Shown: positions 1-5,810 of the stretch, piece by piece
Numbering within the stretch: the first letter of the stretch is position 1
How the letters are laid out: the number at the start of each line of letters is the position of its first letter
Source of the DNA: Paracoccaceae bacterium
GTDB taxonomy: Bacteria; Pseudomonadota; Alphaproteobacteria; Rhodobacterales; Rhodobacteraceae
Length of the DNA stretch: 7,324 bases
Assembly: GCA_016764835.1 (NCBI GenBank)
Contig: JAESRD010000041.1
Coordinates: 1 to 7,324 of the forward strand
Direction of reading: 5' to 3'
Translations under genes and position numbers: made by a program
Notes under the pieces: generated by a model
The model's input: only the letters and a program-made list of their open reading frames with translations
Told to the model about the DNA's origin: nothing
The model's database searches: none

Positions 1-656
1 AACCGTTCGGGGTAGGCCACGCGCGGGCGGGTGCCTGCCGATTCTGGGTAGAGCCGCACATAGATTGAGATAACCACGATATAGCCGAGGGCCGCCAAGA
101 TGCCTGGAATGAAGGCCGCAAGGAATAGTTTGGCAATGTTTTGCTCGGTCAGGATCGCGTAGATCACCAACACCACGGAGGGGGGGATCAGGATGCCGAG
201 CGTGCCACCGGCGGCGAGGGTTGCGGTGGAAAATCCACCTGCATAGCCGTAGCGGCGCATCTCAGGCAGCGCGACCCGGCCCATTGTTGCCGCCGTTGCC
301 AACGACGAGCCGCACACGGCGCCAAACCCGGCGCAAGAGCCAATGGCGGCCATTGCCACCCCGCCCTTGCGGTGACCAAGCCAGCTTTCGCCAGCCTTGA
401 ACAGCGCCTGCGACATGCCGCCAAGCGTTGCGAAATGGCCCATCAGCAAGAACATTGGAATGATCGACAATGAATAGCTGGAGAAGGTGGTAAAGGTCTC
501 TGATTTTAGCCGGCCAAAGGGCACGCTGCTGTCGCCGGTGACAAGGACCAAGCCGACCAGCCCGGCCAAAAACATGGCAAGCCCGATCGGGACTCGCAGA
601 AATATCAGCAGCAGTACTGCTGGAAATGACAATATGCCAATTAGTATGTCACTCAA
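1..656 (-). CDS. dctM: TRAP transporter large permease (DctM), partial
   Basis: This is the large membrane subunit of a TRAP transporter, which moves a carboxylate handed over by DctP across the inner membrane using an ion gradient. The window shows 218 residues, about half the usual length of around 430; the C-terminal half lies beyond position 1. The translation starts with a hydrophobic helix ending in FLRVPIGLAMFLAG. It then carries family signatures: PMFLLMGHFA, GSSLATAATMGRVALPEM around residues 116-133, and AAGGTLGILIPPS at about 148-160. Translation most likely begins at a TTG (656-654), because AGGAG lies seven bases upstream at 664-668 and no ATG occurs in frame until well inside the first helix. 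The start overlaps the dctQ stop as TTGA, so the two genes are probably translationally coupled. Family assignment is very secure; the substrate is not visible in the sequence. Confidence 0.95.
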   Translation of the reverse strand, partial: MSDILIGILSFPAVLLLIFLRVPIGLAMFLAGLVGLVLVTGDSSVPFGRLKSETFTTFSSYSLSIIPMFLLMGHFATLGGMSQALFKAGESWLGHRKGGVAMAAIGSCAGFGAVCGSSLATAATMGRVALPEMRRYGYAGGFSTATLAAGGTLGILIPPSVVLVIYAILTEQNIAKLFLAAFIPGILAALGYIVVISIYVRLYPESAGTRPRVAYPER

Positions 657-1237
657 TGATCTGCTCCTAGATCTGCTGGCAAAAGGTCACGGCCAGTAAG
701 GCTTTCCATCAGCCGCATACCGGCCAAGTATACCGCGATTGCAGCTGCAATGACGGCGCCGACAAGCGACGGCGCATAGGCCCACCAGACCGGAAATTCG
801 ATGAGAAAAGTTGTCTGCCCCGTGCGTAATTTACTGAGCATACCGCCATATAATTGCACGGCTATCAGCACGAATACGGCTGCAAAAACGGCGTCAGTTA
901 TCACCCGCAAAATACGGTTTGCGCGCAGCGAAAACCCGGATGTGAAGACATCGACAGTGGCATGGCCACCGGTGATTTGGCACAAAGGCATGAAGGCAAA
1001 AATGGCAAAAGCAACGCCTGCTTCGATCAATTCATAATCGCCATTTATTGGGCCAATGCCGATGTCCAAGCCCCATTGAGAGAGACCGGCCAAATTTGCT
1101 TGGAAGAAGTCCGAATGAAACATGCCATTTAACGACCGACCAATGATCGATGCGCATGTCAGAAAAATTAGAGCAACCAGCATCAGGCCACCAAGAACAG
1201 CCATGAATCTGGAAATTTTCAGCATGAATTCGTACAT
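653..1237 (-). CDS. dctQ: TRAP transporter small permease (DctQ)
   Basis: This is the small membrane subunit of the TRAP transporter, which pairs with DctM in the inner membrane. The 194-residue product has four likely membrane segments, at about 11-32, 70-87, 108-132 and 150-175. The stretch NGDYELIEAGVAFAIFAFMP followed by CQ...GGHATVDVF is a typical DctQ signature. A hydrophilic or amphipathic stretch of about 30 residues (roughly 36-66, rich in G, S and Q) separates the first two helices and is longer than in compact DctQ proteins. The ATG start at 1237 has a strong GGAGGTGA ribosome site at 1241-1248. The stop codon TGA (655-653) overlaps the TTG start of dctM. The gene lies 68 bp after dctP, with a hairpin in that gap. 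Confidence 0.93.
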   Translation of the reverse strand: MYEFMLKISRFMAVLGGLMLVALIFLTCASIIGRSLNGMFHSDFFQANLAGLSQWGLDIGIGPINGDYELIEAGVAFAIFAFMPLCQITGGHATVDVFTSGFSLRANRILRVITDAVFAAVFVLIAVQLYGGMLSKLRTGQTTFLIEFPVWWAYAPSLVGAVIAAAIAVYLAGMRLMESLTGRDLLPADLGADH

Positions 1238-1264
1238 TGCTCACCTCCACACTCGCAATGAAAA

Positions 1265-1292
1265 GGGCCGCTGCTCAAACGAACAGCGGCCC
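1265..1292 (-). terminator. Hairpin with T-run between dctP and dctQ
   Basis: A perfect 9-bp GC-rich inverted repeat (GGGCCGCTG at 1265-1273, CAGCGGCCC at 1284-1292) encloses a 10-base loop. Read on the minus strand, the stem is followed directly by TTTT (1264-1261), as in an intrinsic terminator. It lies just after the dctP stop and before the dctQ ribosome site. It is therefore more likely a partial terminator or a 3'-end stabiliser of the dctP message than a full stop. TRAP operons often need much more binding protein than permease, and such a structure would provide that. The structure is seen directly; the role is inferred. Confidence 0.75.
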
Positions 1293-1305
1293 CGTATTGT
1301 TGGTC

Positions 1306-2346
1306 TTAATTATTGGCGCTGTACTCAGCCATCAAGGAGCGGGCCTGATCAATCAGTGCCTGACCGTCGATGTCTTTTTCGGCCATATCAGCAATCCATG
1401 TGTCATAGATTGGCTGAACAAGTGGCAACCACTCAGACTCGGCAGTTGCCGCATCAATTGTGATAATGTTGTTGCCAAGCTCAACCGCAATTTCACGCGC
1501 CGGGCCGTCAGCATCAGACTGTGTGCCGCCAGCAAAGATCGAGAAATCAAGGCCAGAATTGGCGTCAATCACCGCTTGCAGGTCTTCTGGCAAGCTGTCG
1601 TAGGCGTCATTGTTCATCGCCAGCACAGAGGTGAGGTTGTAAAGCGCAGGGCCTTCAAACTCAGTGTGGTTCTCAACCAGCTCGGAGACGCGCAACGCTG
1701 CCGTTACTTCCCAAGGGATGGTTGTACCGTCGATCACACCTTTGGAAAGCGCTTCTGGAACGGCGGGCACAGGCATGCCAACTGGGGTAGCGCCTGAGAG
1801 TTCCAGGAGCTGGTTTACGAGACGCGAGCCGCCACGGATTTTCATGCCCTCAAGATCAGCCGGGGTTTCAACCGGATCAGCAGTGTGGAGCATGCCGGGG
1901 CCGTGCAGCCATGTACCCAGAATGTGCACATCGGCAAAATCTTCCTGCATATGCTCTTCGTACATTGTCCAATAAGCATAAGATGCTGCACGCGCATCAT
2001 TGACCATGAACGGCAGTTCAAAAACTTCAGTCCGTGGGAAGCGGCCCGGCGTGTAGCCAACCACTGTCCAGACGATATCGGCAACGCCGTCAATCGCTTG
2101 GTCCAACAATTCTGGTGGTGTGCCGCCCAGCTGCATTGAGGGGAAGCTATCGATATGAATGCGGCCACCAGACTGCTCTTCAACATTGGCTGCCCAAACA
2201 TCAAGGATCAGCCGTGGCACATTGGCCTGAGCTGGCAAAAACTGGTGCAGTTTGAATGTGTGCTCTTGAGCGAACCCGCTTGTGGCTGTCAGCGCCGCAA
2301 GTGTTATCCCACCCAGAGTTCCGAGAACTATTCTACGATTGGTCAT
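1306..2346 (-). CDS. dctP: TRAP transporter substrate-binding protein (DctP)
   Basis: This is the periplasmic solute receptor of the TRAP system, 346 residues long. It opens with a signal peptide (MTNRR, a hydrophobic core to about residue 21, then ATSGFA with likely cleavage near residue 26). The mature part reads as DctP: KLHQFLPAQANVP near the start, PRTEVFELPFM at about 104-114, and MKIRGGSRLVNQLLELSGATP at about 168-188. Arg171 in the last motif aligns with the arginine that grips the substrate carboxylate in this family. PVPAVPEALSKGVIDGTTIPWE follows. The ATG at 2346 has a strong GGGAGGAA site at 2351-2358. The gene is first of dctP-dctQ-dctM and follows paaZ on the same strand after 144 bp. 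Phenylacetate or another aromatic or monocarboxylic acid is a reasonable guess for the ligand from context, not from sequence. Confidence 0.95.
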   Translation of the reverse strand: MTNRRIVLGTLGGITLAALTATSGFAQEHTFKLHQFLPAQANVPRLILDVWAANVEEQSGGRIHIDSFPSMQLGGTPPELLDQAIDGVADIVWTVVGYTPGRFPRTEVFELPFMVNDARAASYAYWTMYEEHMQEDFADVHILGTWLHGPGMLHTADPVETPADLEGMKIRGGSRLVNQLLELSGATPVGMPVPAVPEALSKGVIDGTTIPWEVTAALRVSELVENHTEFEGPALYNLTSVLAMNNDAYDSLPEDLQAVIDANSGLDFSIFAGGTQSDADGPAREIAVELGNNIITIDAATAESEWLPLVQPIYDTWIADMAEKDIDGQALIDQARSLMAEYSANN

Positions 2347-2490: not shown

Positions 2491-4383
2491 CTAAACCGCC
2501 ACCATGGTCAGCAATTCGTAAATTGCGACAGTTTCATCGTCTTCATTCGTGAGCCGAACATGCCACCGCACTTCGCCGTATTCAGCATTACGCGGGGTTT
2601 TGTGCTTAACCGTGAGCGCGGCTGTGATGCTTTGGCCCGGCTCAACCGGCTTCATGAAGCGCAGATTATCAAGCCCGGTATTGGCAAGAACCGGCCCTTC
2701 GCTTGGCTCAACAAACAGGCCCGCAGCAAAGGAAAGCAGCAGATAGCCATGGGCCACGCGGCCGGGGAAAAACGGGTTCCGCTTGGCGGCGGCGTCATCC
2801 ATATGGGCATAGAACGTATCGCCAGTGAAGGCGGCAAACTGCTCTATATCTTCGAGCGATATTTTGCGCGGGTCTGAGATTAGCGTCTCGCCAATGGCCA
2901 GTGCGCCAAAGCGGCGGGTAAACGGGTGCGCGTCAGAACGTGTCTGCGCCGCCCCCGGCACCCATTTGCCGCCAATCGCCGTAATAATATCCGGGCTGCC
3001 TTGGATCGCCGTGCGCTGCATAAAGTGTTTTACGCCGCGGATACCGCCCAGCTCTTCGCCGCCACCGGCGCGGCCCGGGCCGCCATGAACCATATGCGGC
3101 ATAGGCGAGCCGTGGCCTGTACTCTCCGCCATACTGTCGCGATTGTTGAAATACAGCCGCCCATGATAGGCCGCCGCCCCAAGGGTGATTTCAACGGCCA
3201 CATCAGGGTCACGGGTGATCACTGAGGCGACAAGGCTGCCCTGCCCCTTATTCGCCAGCGCAACTGCATGGCCGACATCGCGGTAACCCAAAATGGTGGA
3301 TACCGGGCCAAAGGCTTCGACTTCATGCACTTTAACGGCCGCGTCGGGGTCGGCGCAATGAAACAACATTGGCGAGACAAAAGCACCGTTTTCGATGCCC
3401 CTGCCAAGCGGCGTAAAATCAGGGTTGCCCCAAACTTGCTCAGCCTCTGTGTTAATAATTTTGGCCTTGGCCAGCACATCGTCTTTTTGGGCCAATGACA
3501 CCAGCGCCCCCATGCGCACGCCCTCAACCTGAGGGTCACCAATTGTGGTCTTGGCCAAACGCTGCCCGAGGGCTTCTATCAATGGCTGCACCAGCGCATC
3601 GGGGGCAATGATCCGGCGAATGGCTGTACATTTCTGGCCCGCCTTCACGGTCATCTCGCGGCTGGCCTCTTTGACAAACAGGTCAAATTCTGGCGTGCCC
3701 GGCGCGGCATCTGGCCCAAGAATTGACGCGTTCAGACTGTCTTGCTCGGCGGTAAAGCGCACTCCATTGGCGATGATATTGCGGTTGGTGCGCAGCAACA
3801 TGGCCGTGTCGGCGGAGCCGGTGAATGTCACCGCATCCTGACAGCCGAGCAGGTCGAGCGTATTGCCCAAACCACCGGTAACCAGCTGCAACGCGCCTTC
3901 GGGCAAAATCTCGCTCTCGATCATTAGCCGCATGCAAGCTTCGGTCACATAGCAGCTGACTGTTGCCGGTTTGACCACCGATGGCACACCGGCCAAAATG
4001 CTGGGCGCGAGTTTTTCCAACATGCCCCAGACCGGGAAGTTGAATGCATTGATATGGACCGCGACGCCCTGCCTTGGCGTATAAATATGTTGACCAAGAA
4101 AGAGCCCCTTCTTGCCAAACTGCTCGATGTCGCCGTCGAGCAGCACTTTTGCATCAGGCAATTCGCGCCGGCCTTTGGCGGCATAAACAAACAAGGTGCC
4201 AATGCCGCCATCGACATCAACCATATTGTCAGACTGGGTGGCACCAGTGGCAAATGACAGATCGTATAGCGCTTGTTTATTGGCGTTCAGATGCAAGGCC
4301 AGCGCCTTGAGCATCCGGGCGCGGTCATGAAATGTCAGTGCGCGCAGAGCTTTGCCGCCCCGCTCGCGGCCATAGTCCAGCAT
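2491..4383 (-). CDS. paaZ: Bifunctional oxepin-CoA hydrolase / semialdehyde dehydrogenase PaaZ (open frame after a 5' frameshift)
   Basis: PaaZ opens the oxepin-CoA ring (C-terminal MaoC-like hydratase domain) and oxidises the resulting semialdehyde with NADP+ (N-terminal aldehyde dehydrogenase domain) in the phenylacetyl-CoA pathway. The 630-residue open frame shows HINAFNFPVWGMLEKLAP at 110-127, FTGS at 187-190, catalytic Glu213 in FTAEQDSLN, catalytic Cys252 in GQKCTAIRR, and STGHGSPMPHMVHGGPGRAG at 421-440. The hydratase part has FTGDTFYAHMD at 519-529 (Asp522, His527) and FPGRVAHGYLLLSFAAGLF after it. Glu213 and Cys252 are each 43 short of Glu256 and Cys295 of the E. coli enzyme, so the N-terminus is missing about 42 residues. 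Those residues are encoded just upstream (4384-4508) in two frames, implying a one-base frameshift. The ATG at 4383 has no good ribosome site, so it is probably not the native start. If the frame is restored, the protein is about 672 residues. Confidence 0.93.
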   Translation of the reverse strand: MLDYGRERGGKALRALTFHDRARMLKALALHLNANKQALYDLSFATGATQSDNMVDVDGGIGTLFVYAAKGRRELPDAKVLLDGDIEQFGKKGLFLGQHIYTPRQGVAVHINAFNFPVWGMLEKLAPSILAGVPSVVKPATVSCYVTEACMRLMIESEILPEGALQLVTGGLGNTLDLLGCQDAVTFTGSADTAMLLRTNRNIIANGVRFTAEQDSLNASILGPDAAPGTPEFDLFVKEASREMTVKAGQKCTAIRRIIAPDALVQPLIEALGQRLAKTTIGDPQVEGVRMGALVSLAQKDDVLAKAKIINTEAEQVWGNPDFTPLGRGIENGAFVSPMLFHCADPDAAVKVHEVEAFGPVSTILGYRDVGHAVALANKGQGSLVASVITRDPDVAVEITLGAAAYHGRLYFNNRDSMAESTGHGSPMPHMVHGGPGRAGGGEELGGIRGVKHFMQRTAIQGSPDIITAIGGKWVPGAAQTRSDAHPFTRRFGALAIGETLISDPRKISLEDIEQFAAFTGDTFYAHMDDAAAKRNPFFPGRVAHGYLLLSFAAGLFVEPSEGPVLANTGLDNLRFMKPVEPGQSITAALTVKHKTPRNAEYGEVRWHVRLTNEDDETVAIYELLTMVAV

Positions 4384-4508
4384 GGCTTCAAAGTTCAGTG
4401 CCGTGTTACCGGCGCGGGCAAAAACCTGCCCGTCACCGCATTAGCGATATCGCGTGCGCCGTCACCAGACCCGACCCAATCGCCGCAGACATAACTTTGA
4501 ATGTCCAT
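4384..4508 (-). pseudogene. paaZ: Detached 5' end of paaZ, out of frame with the rest
   Basis: From ATG at 4508 the minus strand reads MDIQSYVCGDWVGSGDG, then ARDIANAVTG, a typical PaaZ/ALDH N-terminus (xSYVxGxW...NxxTG). It then runs into a stop at 4397-4395 after 37 codons. Shifting frame at about 4420-4431 continues as QVFARAGNTALNFEA and joins the main paaZ frame at Met 4383 with the expected spacing. One base seems to be missing, either after GGG at 4431-4429 or in the T-run (A5 on the plus strand, 4420-4424). The native start is probably the ATG at 4508, although the nearest AGGAG (4527-4531) is about 18 bases away, which is too far for a normal ribosome site. This could be a real mutation or a sequencing or assembly error. 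Confidence 0.8.
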
Positions 4509-4608
4509 GTGTGTAATTGCTGGCGGCTCCTAATTGATTCCATCCAATCATTGACCGTCCAGTCGGTTTATGCAAGCTTTTGATTGTGACAAGCGAAAAG
4601 GTGAAAAC
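4509..4608. promoter_or_regulatory. Divergent paaZ/paaG control region
   Basis: This 100-bp stretch lies between the inferred paaZ start (minus) and the paaG start (plus), so promoters for both transcripts should lie here. On the minus strand TTGCAT (4575-4570) and AATGAT (4552-4547) are spaced 17 bp apart and form a weak promoter candidate for paaZ. On the plus strand TTGACC (4551-4556) resembles a -35, but no good -10 follows at the usual distance. The inverted repeat annotated separately overlaps both candidates, as an operator for joint repression would. The paaG ribosome site AAGGTG is at 4598-4603. Confidence 0.5.
4549..4572. promoter_or_regulatory. Imperfect inverted repeat, candidate TetR/PaaR operator
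   Basis: The dyad is centred between 4560 and 4561. Pairs match at 4549-4551 with 4570-4572 (CAT/ATG), at 4554-4557 with 4564-4567 (ACCG/CGGT), and at 4559 with 4562, giving 8 of 12 possible pairs. ACCG/CGGT half-sites of this sort are common for TetR-type regulators of acyl-CoA pathways. A TetR-type gene lies at the end of the plus-strand operon, and the site overlaps the likely promoters of both paaZ and paaG. The repeat is seen directly; its binding protein is inferred. Confidence 0.4.
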
Positions 4609-5388
4609 ATGTCTCAGCCGATTTTGGTGACCGATCATGGCAAATGGGTGGAAATCACCCTCAACCGGCCTGACCGTCTAAACAGCTTCACGGCCGACAT
4701 GCATTTGGCTTTACGCCATGCTCTTGAAGATGCGCAAAGCAAACGTGCGGTTTTGCTAACGGGCGCAGGGCGCGGGTTTTGTGCCGGCCAAGACCTGGGC
4801 GACAGAGACCCTGCCAAAATGGACGGCCCGCCAGATTTGGGCGCCACCGTGCGTGAATATTGGGCGCCCTTGGTGCGGCAGATCAGAGCGCTGGAAATGC
4901 CTGTCATCTGTGCTGTCAACGGGGTCGCGGCGGGCGCGGGCTCTAGCCTTGCGCTCAATTGTGATATCGTTCTAGCGGCGCAAAGCGCTAAATTCATCCA
5001 GTCATTTTCCAAGGTTGGGCTGATCCCTGATACGGGCGGCAGCTGGCAACTGACCCGTTTGCTCGGCCCCGCCCGTGCCCGCGGCTTGGCCCTGACCGCC
5101 CAGCCGCTCACCGCGCAGATGGCCGCAGATTGGGGCATGATCTGGCAAGCTTTGCCAGACGATAGCTTGCTTGATGAGGCCCGCAAACTGACCGTGCAAT
5201 TGTCTAACGGCCCGACCCTCGGCTTTGCGGCCACGAAGCGCGCAATTGACGCCGCCGCGACAAACACGCTTGATGAGCACCTCGATCTTGAGGCAGAATT
5301 GATGAAAACCTGCGGCGAAAGCGCTGATTACGCCGAAGGAGTGAGTGCATTTTTGAACAAGCGCAAAGCGGAGTTTAAAGGGCGATGA
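4609..5388 (+). CDS. paaG: Ring 1,2-epoxyphenylacetyl-CoA isomerase PaaG
   Basis: PaaG is a crotonase-fold enzyme that converts ring-1,2-epoxyphenylacetyl-CoA into the oxepin-CoA, and it also shifts double bonds later in the pathway. The 259-residue product matches the family in length. It shows LNRPDRLNSF at 18-27, LTGAGRGFCAGQDLGDRDP at 50-68 (CoA-binding and oxyanion-hole region), VICAVNGVAAGAGSSLAL at 99-116, and FSKVGLIPDTGGSW at 133-146 with the likely catalytic Asp141. The end, ADYAEGVSAFLNKR, is typical of the family. An in-frame ATG at 4570 would add 13 residues (MQAFDCDKRKGEN). I prefer 4609 because AAGGTG lies five bases upstream and family members begin near there. The stop overlaps the paaI start as ATGA. 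Confidence 0.95.
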   Translation: MSQPILVTDHGKWVEITLNRPDRLNSFTADMHLALRHALEDAQSKRAVLLTGAGRGFCAGQDLGDRDPAKMDGPPDLGATVREYWAPLVRQIRALEMPVICAVNGVAAGAGSSLALNCDIVLAAQSAKFIQSFSKVGLIPDTGGSWQLTRLLGPARARGLALTAQPLTAQMAADWGMIWQALPDDSLLDEARKLTVQLSNGPTLGFAATKRAIDAAATNTLDEHLDLEAELMKTCGESADYAEGVSAFLNKRKAEFKGR

Positions 5389-5810
5389 CAACAATTGCAC
5401 AGCGCTGCGCCGCCGCCATGTGGGCAAATGACGCCGCCTCCAAATGGTTTGGCTTCAAACTTGAGGATGTGACTGAGGGGCGGGCAACCGTCACACTGGA
5501 TGTCCAGCCGCACCACTGCAATGGCCACGGAAATTTGCACGGCGGCGTCACGTTTGCACTGGCCGACAGCGCCTTTGCCTTTGCCTGCAACAGCCGCAAT
5601 CAAGTCACCGTCGCGCAGTCGAACTCAATAACCTATCTGTCGCCGGGCGTTGTTGGCGAAGTGATCACCGCGCAGGCGCATGAAGTCACGCTCAGGGGAA
5701 AAACCGGCATTTATGATGTGCGCGTTACCCGCCCTGACGGCACCATCATTGCAGAATTTCGCGGTCAATCCCGTGCGGTTTTGGGCACATTATTCGAGGA
5801 AACAACTTGA
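5385..5810 (+). CDS. paaI: Hydroxyphenylacetyl-CoA thioesterase PaaI
   Basis: PaaI is a hotdog-fold thioesterase that releases CoA from hydroxylated or stalled phenylacetyl-CoA derivatives, so that the CoA pool is not trapped by dead-end products. The 141-residue length is normal. The core motif NGHGNLHGGVTFALADSAFAFACNS spans 46-70, and Asp61 sits where the catalytic aspartate of the E. coli enzyme lies. YLSPGVVGEVITAQAHEV and GKTGIYDVRVTRPDG follow, and then FRGQSRA. The ATG start overlaps the paaG stop (ATGA, 5385-5388), and the stop overlaps the start of paaK (TTGA, 5807-5810), so all three genes are probably co-translated. Confidence 0.95.
   Translation: MTTIAQRCAAAMWANDAASKWFGFKLEDVTEGRATVTLDVQPHHCNGHGNLHGGVTFALADSAFAFACNSRNQVTVAQSNSITYLSPGVVGEVITAQAHEVTLRGKTGIYDVRVTRPDGTIIAEFRGQSRAVLGTLFEETT

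What the first reader, a model, noticed from the sequence alone, without database searches (positions are those of the whole stretch)
4420..4431. Apparent one-base frameshift near the 5' end of paaZ
Sequence directly shows PaaZ-like N-terminal residues (4508 to about 4431) in one frame, and the rest of the enzyme in another, joining near GGG at 4429-4431 or the homopolymer at 4420-4424. Glu213 and Cys252 in the open frame are 43 short of the E. coli catalytic positions, and the 42 residues lost match the missing N-terminus. If real, the cell makes PaaZ without its normal start, and the downstream ATG has no good ribosome site. PaaZ would then be weak or absent, which would leave reactive aldehyde or oxepin intermediates to accumulate.
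Basis: partly seen in the sequence, partly recalled or inferred. Interest (0 to 1): 0.75.

Follow-up and report, generated by a model that had tools for sequence, protein, structure and literature searches.

The report
Frame break in paaZ, probably error
A gene for breaking down the aromatic compound phenylacetate appears cut near its start by a one-base frame break, but a nearly identical intact copy is known from another, longer contig, so this is most likely a sequence error or a private recent mutation.

Summary
On the minus strand, codons 4517-4431 encode a PaaZ N-terminus and codons from 4428 to 2491 the rest, in another frame; the sequence is one base short at the GGG at 4429-4431. The five-base run at 4420-4424 is rejected as the junction. 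The open 630-aa frame is otherwise an ordinary PaaZ; the 12 active-site residues checked are all present.

The interpretation (a PaaZ-poor cell) is conditional and probably wrong for the organism. A database protein (P0001, 675 aa, contig of 67,292 bases) is continuous through the break and differs at 1 of the 630 downstream residues. The window's PaaK (436/436) and DctP (345/346) also have matches listed with a contig of that length. 80 of the 80 genome loci kept show paaZ in one frame. The 7,324-base window, apparently a whole contig, has further private oddities: DctP Ser240 (Phe in 118 of 118 others), PaaZ Arg328 (0 of 120), and ATT where P0001 starts with Met.

Best reading: uncorrected errors in a short contig (about 0.75). 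Rivals: a real, recent, strain-private null or weak allele (about 0.2); recoding (about 0.02). Read mapping would settle it. Interest is low.

The parts
4429..4431 (-). Junction of the two frames; one base short within the codon of the conserved Gly30
4431..4517 (-). PaaZ N-terminal residues 1-29 in frame A (ATT 4517-4515, ATG 4508-4506)
   Evidence: 28 of 28 identical to P0001 residues 2-29
4384..4428 (-). PaaZ residues 31-45 in the frame of the long ORF, with no ATG, GTG or TTG start of its own
   Evidence: 15 of 15 identical to P0001; codons
2491..4383 (-). Open paaZ frame of 630 aa (aldehyde dehydrogenase and MaoC-type hydratase domains)
   Evidence: TIGR02278 917.1 bits, cut-off 562.8; Pfam Aldedh and MaoC_dehydratas
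4395..4397 (-). TGA that ends frame A, 11 bases before ATG 4383
4441..4443 (-). TAA that closes the long ORF's frame upstream
4527..4531 (-). AGGAG, a Shine-Dalgarno-like site 9 bases before ATT 4517 and 18 before ATG 4508
3400..3402 (-). PaaZ codon 328, Arg here, Thr in P0001, Arg in 0 of 120 relatives
1627..1629 (-). DctP codon 240, Ser here, Phe in P0242 and in 118 of 118 further relatives
1306..2346 (-). dctP, TRAP transporter solute-binding protein, 345 of 346 identical to P0242
4609..5388 (+). paaG, intact, divergent from paaZ
   Evidence: TIGR02280 370.2 bits, profile 1-256 of 256
5385..5810 (+). paaI thioesterase, intact
   Evidence: TIGR02286 137 bits
5807..7117 (+). paaK, intact, 436 of 436 identical to P0121

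Best explanation
The break is most likely an uncorrected one-base error in a short contig of modest quality; the organism probably carries an ordinary intact paaZ. Shown: the sequence is one base short within the conserved Gly codon, and a near-identical protein continuous through the break is listed with a contig of 67,292 bases. Inferred: that the base was lost in sequencing or assembly and not in the cell.
For: P0001 (675 aa, contig 67,292) matches both frames and differs at 1 of the 630 downstream residues. PaaK is 436/436 identical to P0121 and DctP 345/346 to P0242, both listed with a longest contig of 67,292, so that contig most likely covers the same locus of a very close relative. The window's own DctP (P0241) is listed with a contig of 7,324, so the window appears to be a whole short contig. 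In the protein-level differences from the sibling the window tends to be the odd one: Ser240 of DctP against Phe in 118 of 118 others; Arg328 of PaaZ in 0 of 120 relatives; ATT where P0001 has its first Met. The 120 listed database relatives, of 8000 scored, are 672-688 aa long.
Against: No reads, coverage or sequencing platform were available, nor the DNA of the 67,292-base contig. The break is at a three-base GGG, a weak error hotspot, and not in one of the 21 runs of five or more in the window. No other frame break is seen in paaG, paaI, paaK or dctP, so the indel rate is low. In the conserved-column test the window's PaaZ has no departure of its own: window and sibling depart at the same 8 columns; PaaK (2; six controls 0-5) and PaaG (0; controls 0-1) look ordinary, PaaI has 2 (controls 0-1), and only DctP has one window-only case. 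Thr328 of P0001 is itself unique among the 120 (97 have Ala), so that site does not clearly mark the window as wrong. The codon behind Met1 of P0001 was not seen. A real private allele would look the same at this resolution.
Confidence: 0.75

Rival explanations
1. A real, very recent, strain-private frameshift. Frame A gives a peptide of some 37-40 residues that stops at 4397-4395, and PaaZ is absent or made weakly by reinitiation at ATG 4383. The cell would then convert phenylacetate poorly and leak oxepin-CoA or the semialdehyde product.
For: The break is in the sequence. ATT at the usual start position could be a second lesion in the same gene. The window differs from the sibling at other residues, so it could be another strain. 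The stop-to-ATG distance of 11 bases would permit reinitiation.
Against: The other 630 codons are intact and 629 of 630 residues match the sibling, so there is no further decay of the reading frame. The intact form is listed with a contig nine times longer. The lesion is not shared by any of 80 kept loci. Ser240 in DctP, at a column where 118 of 118 others agree, would need a second private change in a neighbouring gene.
Confidence: 0.2
2. Recoding: ribosomes shift frame at the junction and make full-length PaaZ from the sequence as it stands.
For: The two frames overlap by about 43 bases (4440-4398) in which a shift would give a nearly normal protein.
Against: No X XXY YYZ heptamer in frame A between 4508 and about 4390; the break is not conserved, 0 of 80 kept loci. 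Structure of the message near the junction was not tested.
Confidence: 0.02
3. A truncated PaaZ with its true start at ATG 4383, an evolved shorter form.
For: ATG 4383 is the first ATG, GTG or TTG of the open frame.
Against: That Met is an ordinary internal residue: Met in 116 of 120 relatives at the same position. The upstream residues are still encoded and identical to the sibling's. The lost part holds 8 columns that are invariant among 30 relatives and five predicted strands.
Confidence: 0.03

Closest known systems
PaaZ, bifunctional oxepin-CoA hydrolase / 3-oxo-5,6-dehydrosuberyl-CoA semialdehyde dehydrogenase (TIGR02278; E. coli structures 6jql-6jqo)
   Same: Domain order; 917.1 bits against a cut-off of 562.8; residues matching Glu256, Cys295, His472, Asp561 and His566 present; paaG, paaI and paaK beside it
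   Different: N-terminal 42-45 residues lie in another frame in this contig
P0001, intact 675-aa PaaZ listed with a 67,292-base contig, organism not named
   Same: 629 of 630 residues downstream, residues 2-29 and 31-45 identical
   Different: One continuous frame; Met at residue 1; Thr where the window has Arg328
Phaeobacter inhibens PaaZ2 and the laboratory variant PaaZ-E256Q, ALDH-deficient PaaZ (passages of PMC7497051)
   Same: A PaaZ whose dehydrogenase function would be impaired while the hydratase domain remains, if the break were real
   Different: There the loss is by replacement of a catalytic residue; here those residues are kept and an N-terminal piece is lost
Frame-breaking indel errors in metagenome assemblies (passages of PMC8103633)
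   Same: Single-base break in an otherwise conserved gene, absent from another, longer contig
   Different: The platform of this contig is unknown; that paper concerns Nanopore data

Membership tests
PaaZ (TIGR02278) | Whole-protein score above the curated cut-off | tested here: met
   917.1 bits, cut-off 562.8, profile 43-663 of 664
PaaZ (TIGR02278) | Dehydrogenase residues Glu256, Cys295, His472, Asn158 and hydratase residues Asp561, His566 | tested here: met
   All present, mapped through the alignment to 6jql; roles from passages of PMC6739347 and PMC7497051
PaaZ (TIGR02278) | Complete N-terminus in one reading frame | tested here: not met
   Two frames in this contig; the profile match begins at position 43
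PaaZ (TIGR02278) | Enzyme activity on oxepin-CoA and its product | not testable with these tools
   Needs expression and assay
Programmed ribosomal frameshifting | Break conserved among relatives | tested here: not met
   0 of 80 kept loci broken
Programmed ribosomal frameshifting | Slippery heptamer X XXY YYZ in register | tested here: not met
   None in frame A from 4508 to about 4390
Programmed ribosomal frameshifting | Stimulating message structure downstream | not tested
   No folding call was made
Pseudogene | Further decay beyond one lesion | tested here: inconclusive
   ATT at the usual start position and Arg328, but the remaining frame is open and 629 of 630 identical to P0001
Sequence error | Reads contradict the consensus | not testable with these tools
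   No reads available; indirect evidence

The most novel reading that the evidence does not exclude
A real natural PaaZ allele that loses the N-terminal strands of its dehydrogenase domain but still makes a 630-residue protein by reinitiation, with the hydratase active and the dehydrogenase crippled. It would divert phenylacetate catabolism to the seven-membered-ring CoA ester that is the precursor of tropones, without any catalytic residue being changed.
Probability: 0.03. Interest if true: 0.5.

Novelty: not a real feature. Interest (0 to 1): 0.1.

Why it matters
Mostly as a caution: a frame break in a conserved catabolic gene on a single contig can be weighed by looking for an intact near-identical sibling and for other private, family-violating residues in the same contig. 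If it were real, it would be a natural case of dehydrogenase-impaired PaaZ, the condition reported to feed formation of the tropone precursor (passages of PMC7497051).

Tried and rejected
Rejected: junction at the homopolymer 4420-4424 (would give Arg-Phe at residues 31-32, where P0001 has Gln-Val). In other relatives position 31 is Arg in 4 of 120 and position 32 is Phe in none of 120. Programmed frameshifting (no slippery heptamer; not conserved). ATG 4383 as an evolved start (Met in 116 of 120 relatives at that position).

Led nowhere: the plasmid search gave one match covering 5% of the query (query 608-721). A DNA search of 390 genomes drawn from the order of G002 gave 137 with a match at E 1e-100 or better, best 71% identity, so no close relative whose DNA could be compared. 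The one viral contig scan gave one distant partial match. A literature search for paaZ with frameshift gave 4 papers, seen as a listing only and none with a title on the subject. A search on ATT start codons was seen as a listing only and not used. The AlphaFold model has modest confidence (mean pLDDT 75.4; blocks of the first 50 residues 80-94) and was used only for the secondary structure of the N-terminus. The conserved-column test had 119, 118 and 119 relatives for PaaZ, DctP and PaaK, 35 and 53 for PaaG and PaaI, 12 for DctM; for DctQ only 1 relative was found and no test was run. DctM showed 5 departures on 12 relatives (six controls 16, 0, 1, 0, 1, 0), too few to judge. No comparison of synonymous and non-synonymous change was possible without the sibling's DNA.

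Full report
Observation. The window carries a phenylacetate gene cluster: paaG, paaI and paaK and the start of a TetR-type regulator on the plus strand, and on the minus strand paaZ followed by TRAP transporter genes dctP, dctQ and a partial dctM. The paaZ ORF is 630 aa (4383-2491) and passes the PaaZ model TIGR02278 with 917.1 bits against 562.8, but matches the profile only from position 43. Upstream, another frame encodes the missing piece: 4517-4431 reads ITHMDIQSYVCGDWVGSGDGARDIANAVT; the ORF's frame resumes at 4428 with QVFARAGNTALNFEA.

Exact place. The database protein P0001 (675 aa) reads straight through: its residues 2-29 equal frame A (28 of 28) and 31-45 equal frame C (15 of 15). 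Residue 30 is Gly in 120 of 120 listed relatives, and only two bases are available for it in the window. The junction is at GGG 4429-4431. A break in the five-base run 4420-4424 would give residues 31-32 other than those of P0001, so that alternative is rejected.

Intact sibling. P0001 is listed with a contig of 67,292 bases and differs from the 630-aa ORF at one residue (window Arg328, P0001 Thr). The window's PaaK is identical to P0121, listed with a contig of the same length, 67,292. Its DctP differs at one residue from P0242, listed with 67,292, while the window's own DctP, P0241, is listed with 7,324, the window's length.

Who is odd. At DctP 240 the window has Ser, while P0242 and 118 of 118 further relatives have Phe. 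At PaaZ 328 Arg is in 0 of 120 relatives, Ala in 97 and Thr only in P0001, so this site is less telling. At the family start, used by 108 of 120 listed relatives, the window codon is ATT; P0001 has Met, though its codon was not seen. Among 80 genome loci the codon placed there by ungapped extension is ATG in 48, GTG in 2, TTG in 3 and ATT in 2, but where starts differ this placement is not reliable. An AGGAG lies 9 bases before ATT 4517 and 18 before ATG 4508. Against an error-rich contig: at PaaZ columns conserved to 97% or more, window and sibling depart at the same 8 places, so none is the window's own (six controls 2-9). PaaK has 2 departures (controls 0-5), PaaG 0 (controls 0-1), PaaI 2 (controls 0-1) and DctP 5, of which 4 are shared with the sibling (controls 0-1).

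Relatives. All 80 show one stop-free match from residue 8 or earlier to 672 or later. The 120 listed proteins, of 8000 scored, are 672-688 aa; the search would have admitted 630-aa forms by its length rule.

Consequence if real. The 630-aa form would keep each of the 12 residues checked, those matching K69, F108, N155, N158, F159, W162, E256, C295, H472, D561, H566 and R613 of E. coli PaaZ (mapping; roles from passages of PMC6739347 and PMC7497051). It would lose five predicted strands and begin inside a predicted helix (residues 43-60), and lose 8 columns invariant among 30 relatives. ATG 4383 follows the frame A stop by 11 bases, so low-level reinitiation is possible. A dehydrogenase-impaired but hydratase-active PaaZ would favour the tropone precursor (passages of PMC7497051). 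That the 630-aa form is made, folds or has either activity is inference.

Verdict. Most likely a sequence error in a short contig (0.75); a real private recent allele is the main rival (0.2). Indels that break frames in metagenome assemblies are described for Nanopore data (passages of PMC8103633). Nothing new in kind.

Noticed in passing
window 1627-1629 (minus strand): DctP Ser240 where the sibling P0242 and 118 of 118 further relatives have Phe.
   Followed up: yes
window 4515-4517 (minus strand): ATT stands where 108 of 120 listed PaaZ relatives start; the AGGAG at 4531-4527 is spaced for this codon rather than for ATG 4508.
   Followed up: partly
window 4570-4609: The paaG ORF is listed from ATG 4570, but the family match begins at its residue 18, so ATG 4609 is the likelier start.
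   Followed up: no
L094:1282-1887: An IMG/VR contig holds the N-terminal part of a PaaZ (52% identity over P0001 residues 6-171) that ends abruptly in unrelated sequence; neighbouring ORFs look partly bacterial, partly phage-like by eye, so a chimeric join or an insertion is possible.
   Followed up: no
window 3-2346 (minus strand): A TRAP transporter set (dctP, dctQ, partial dctM) follows paaZ on the same strand; whether its substrate is an aromatic acid is a guess. DctP relatives at 83-87% identity exist.
   Followed up: no
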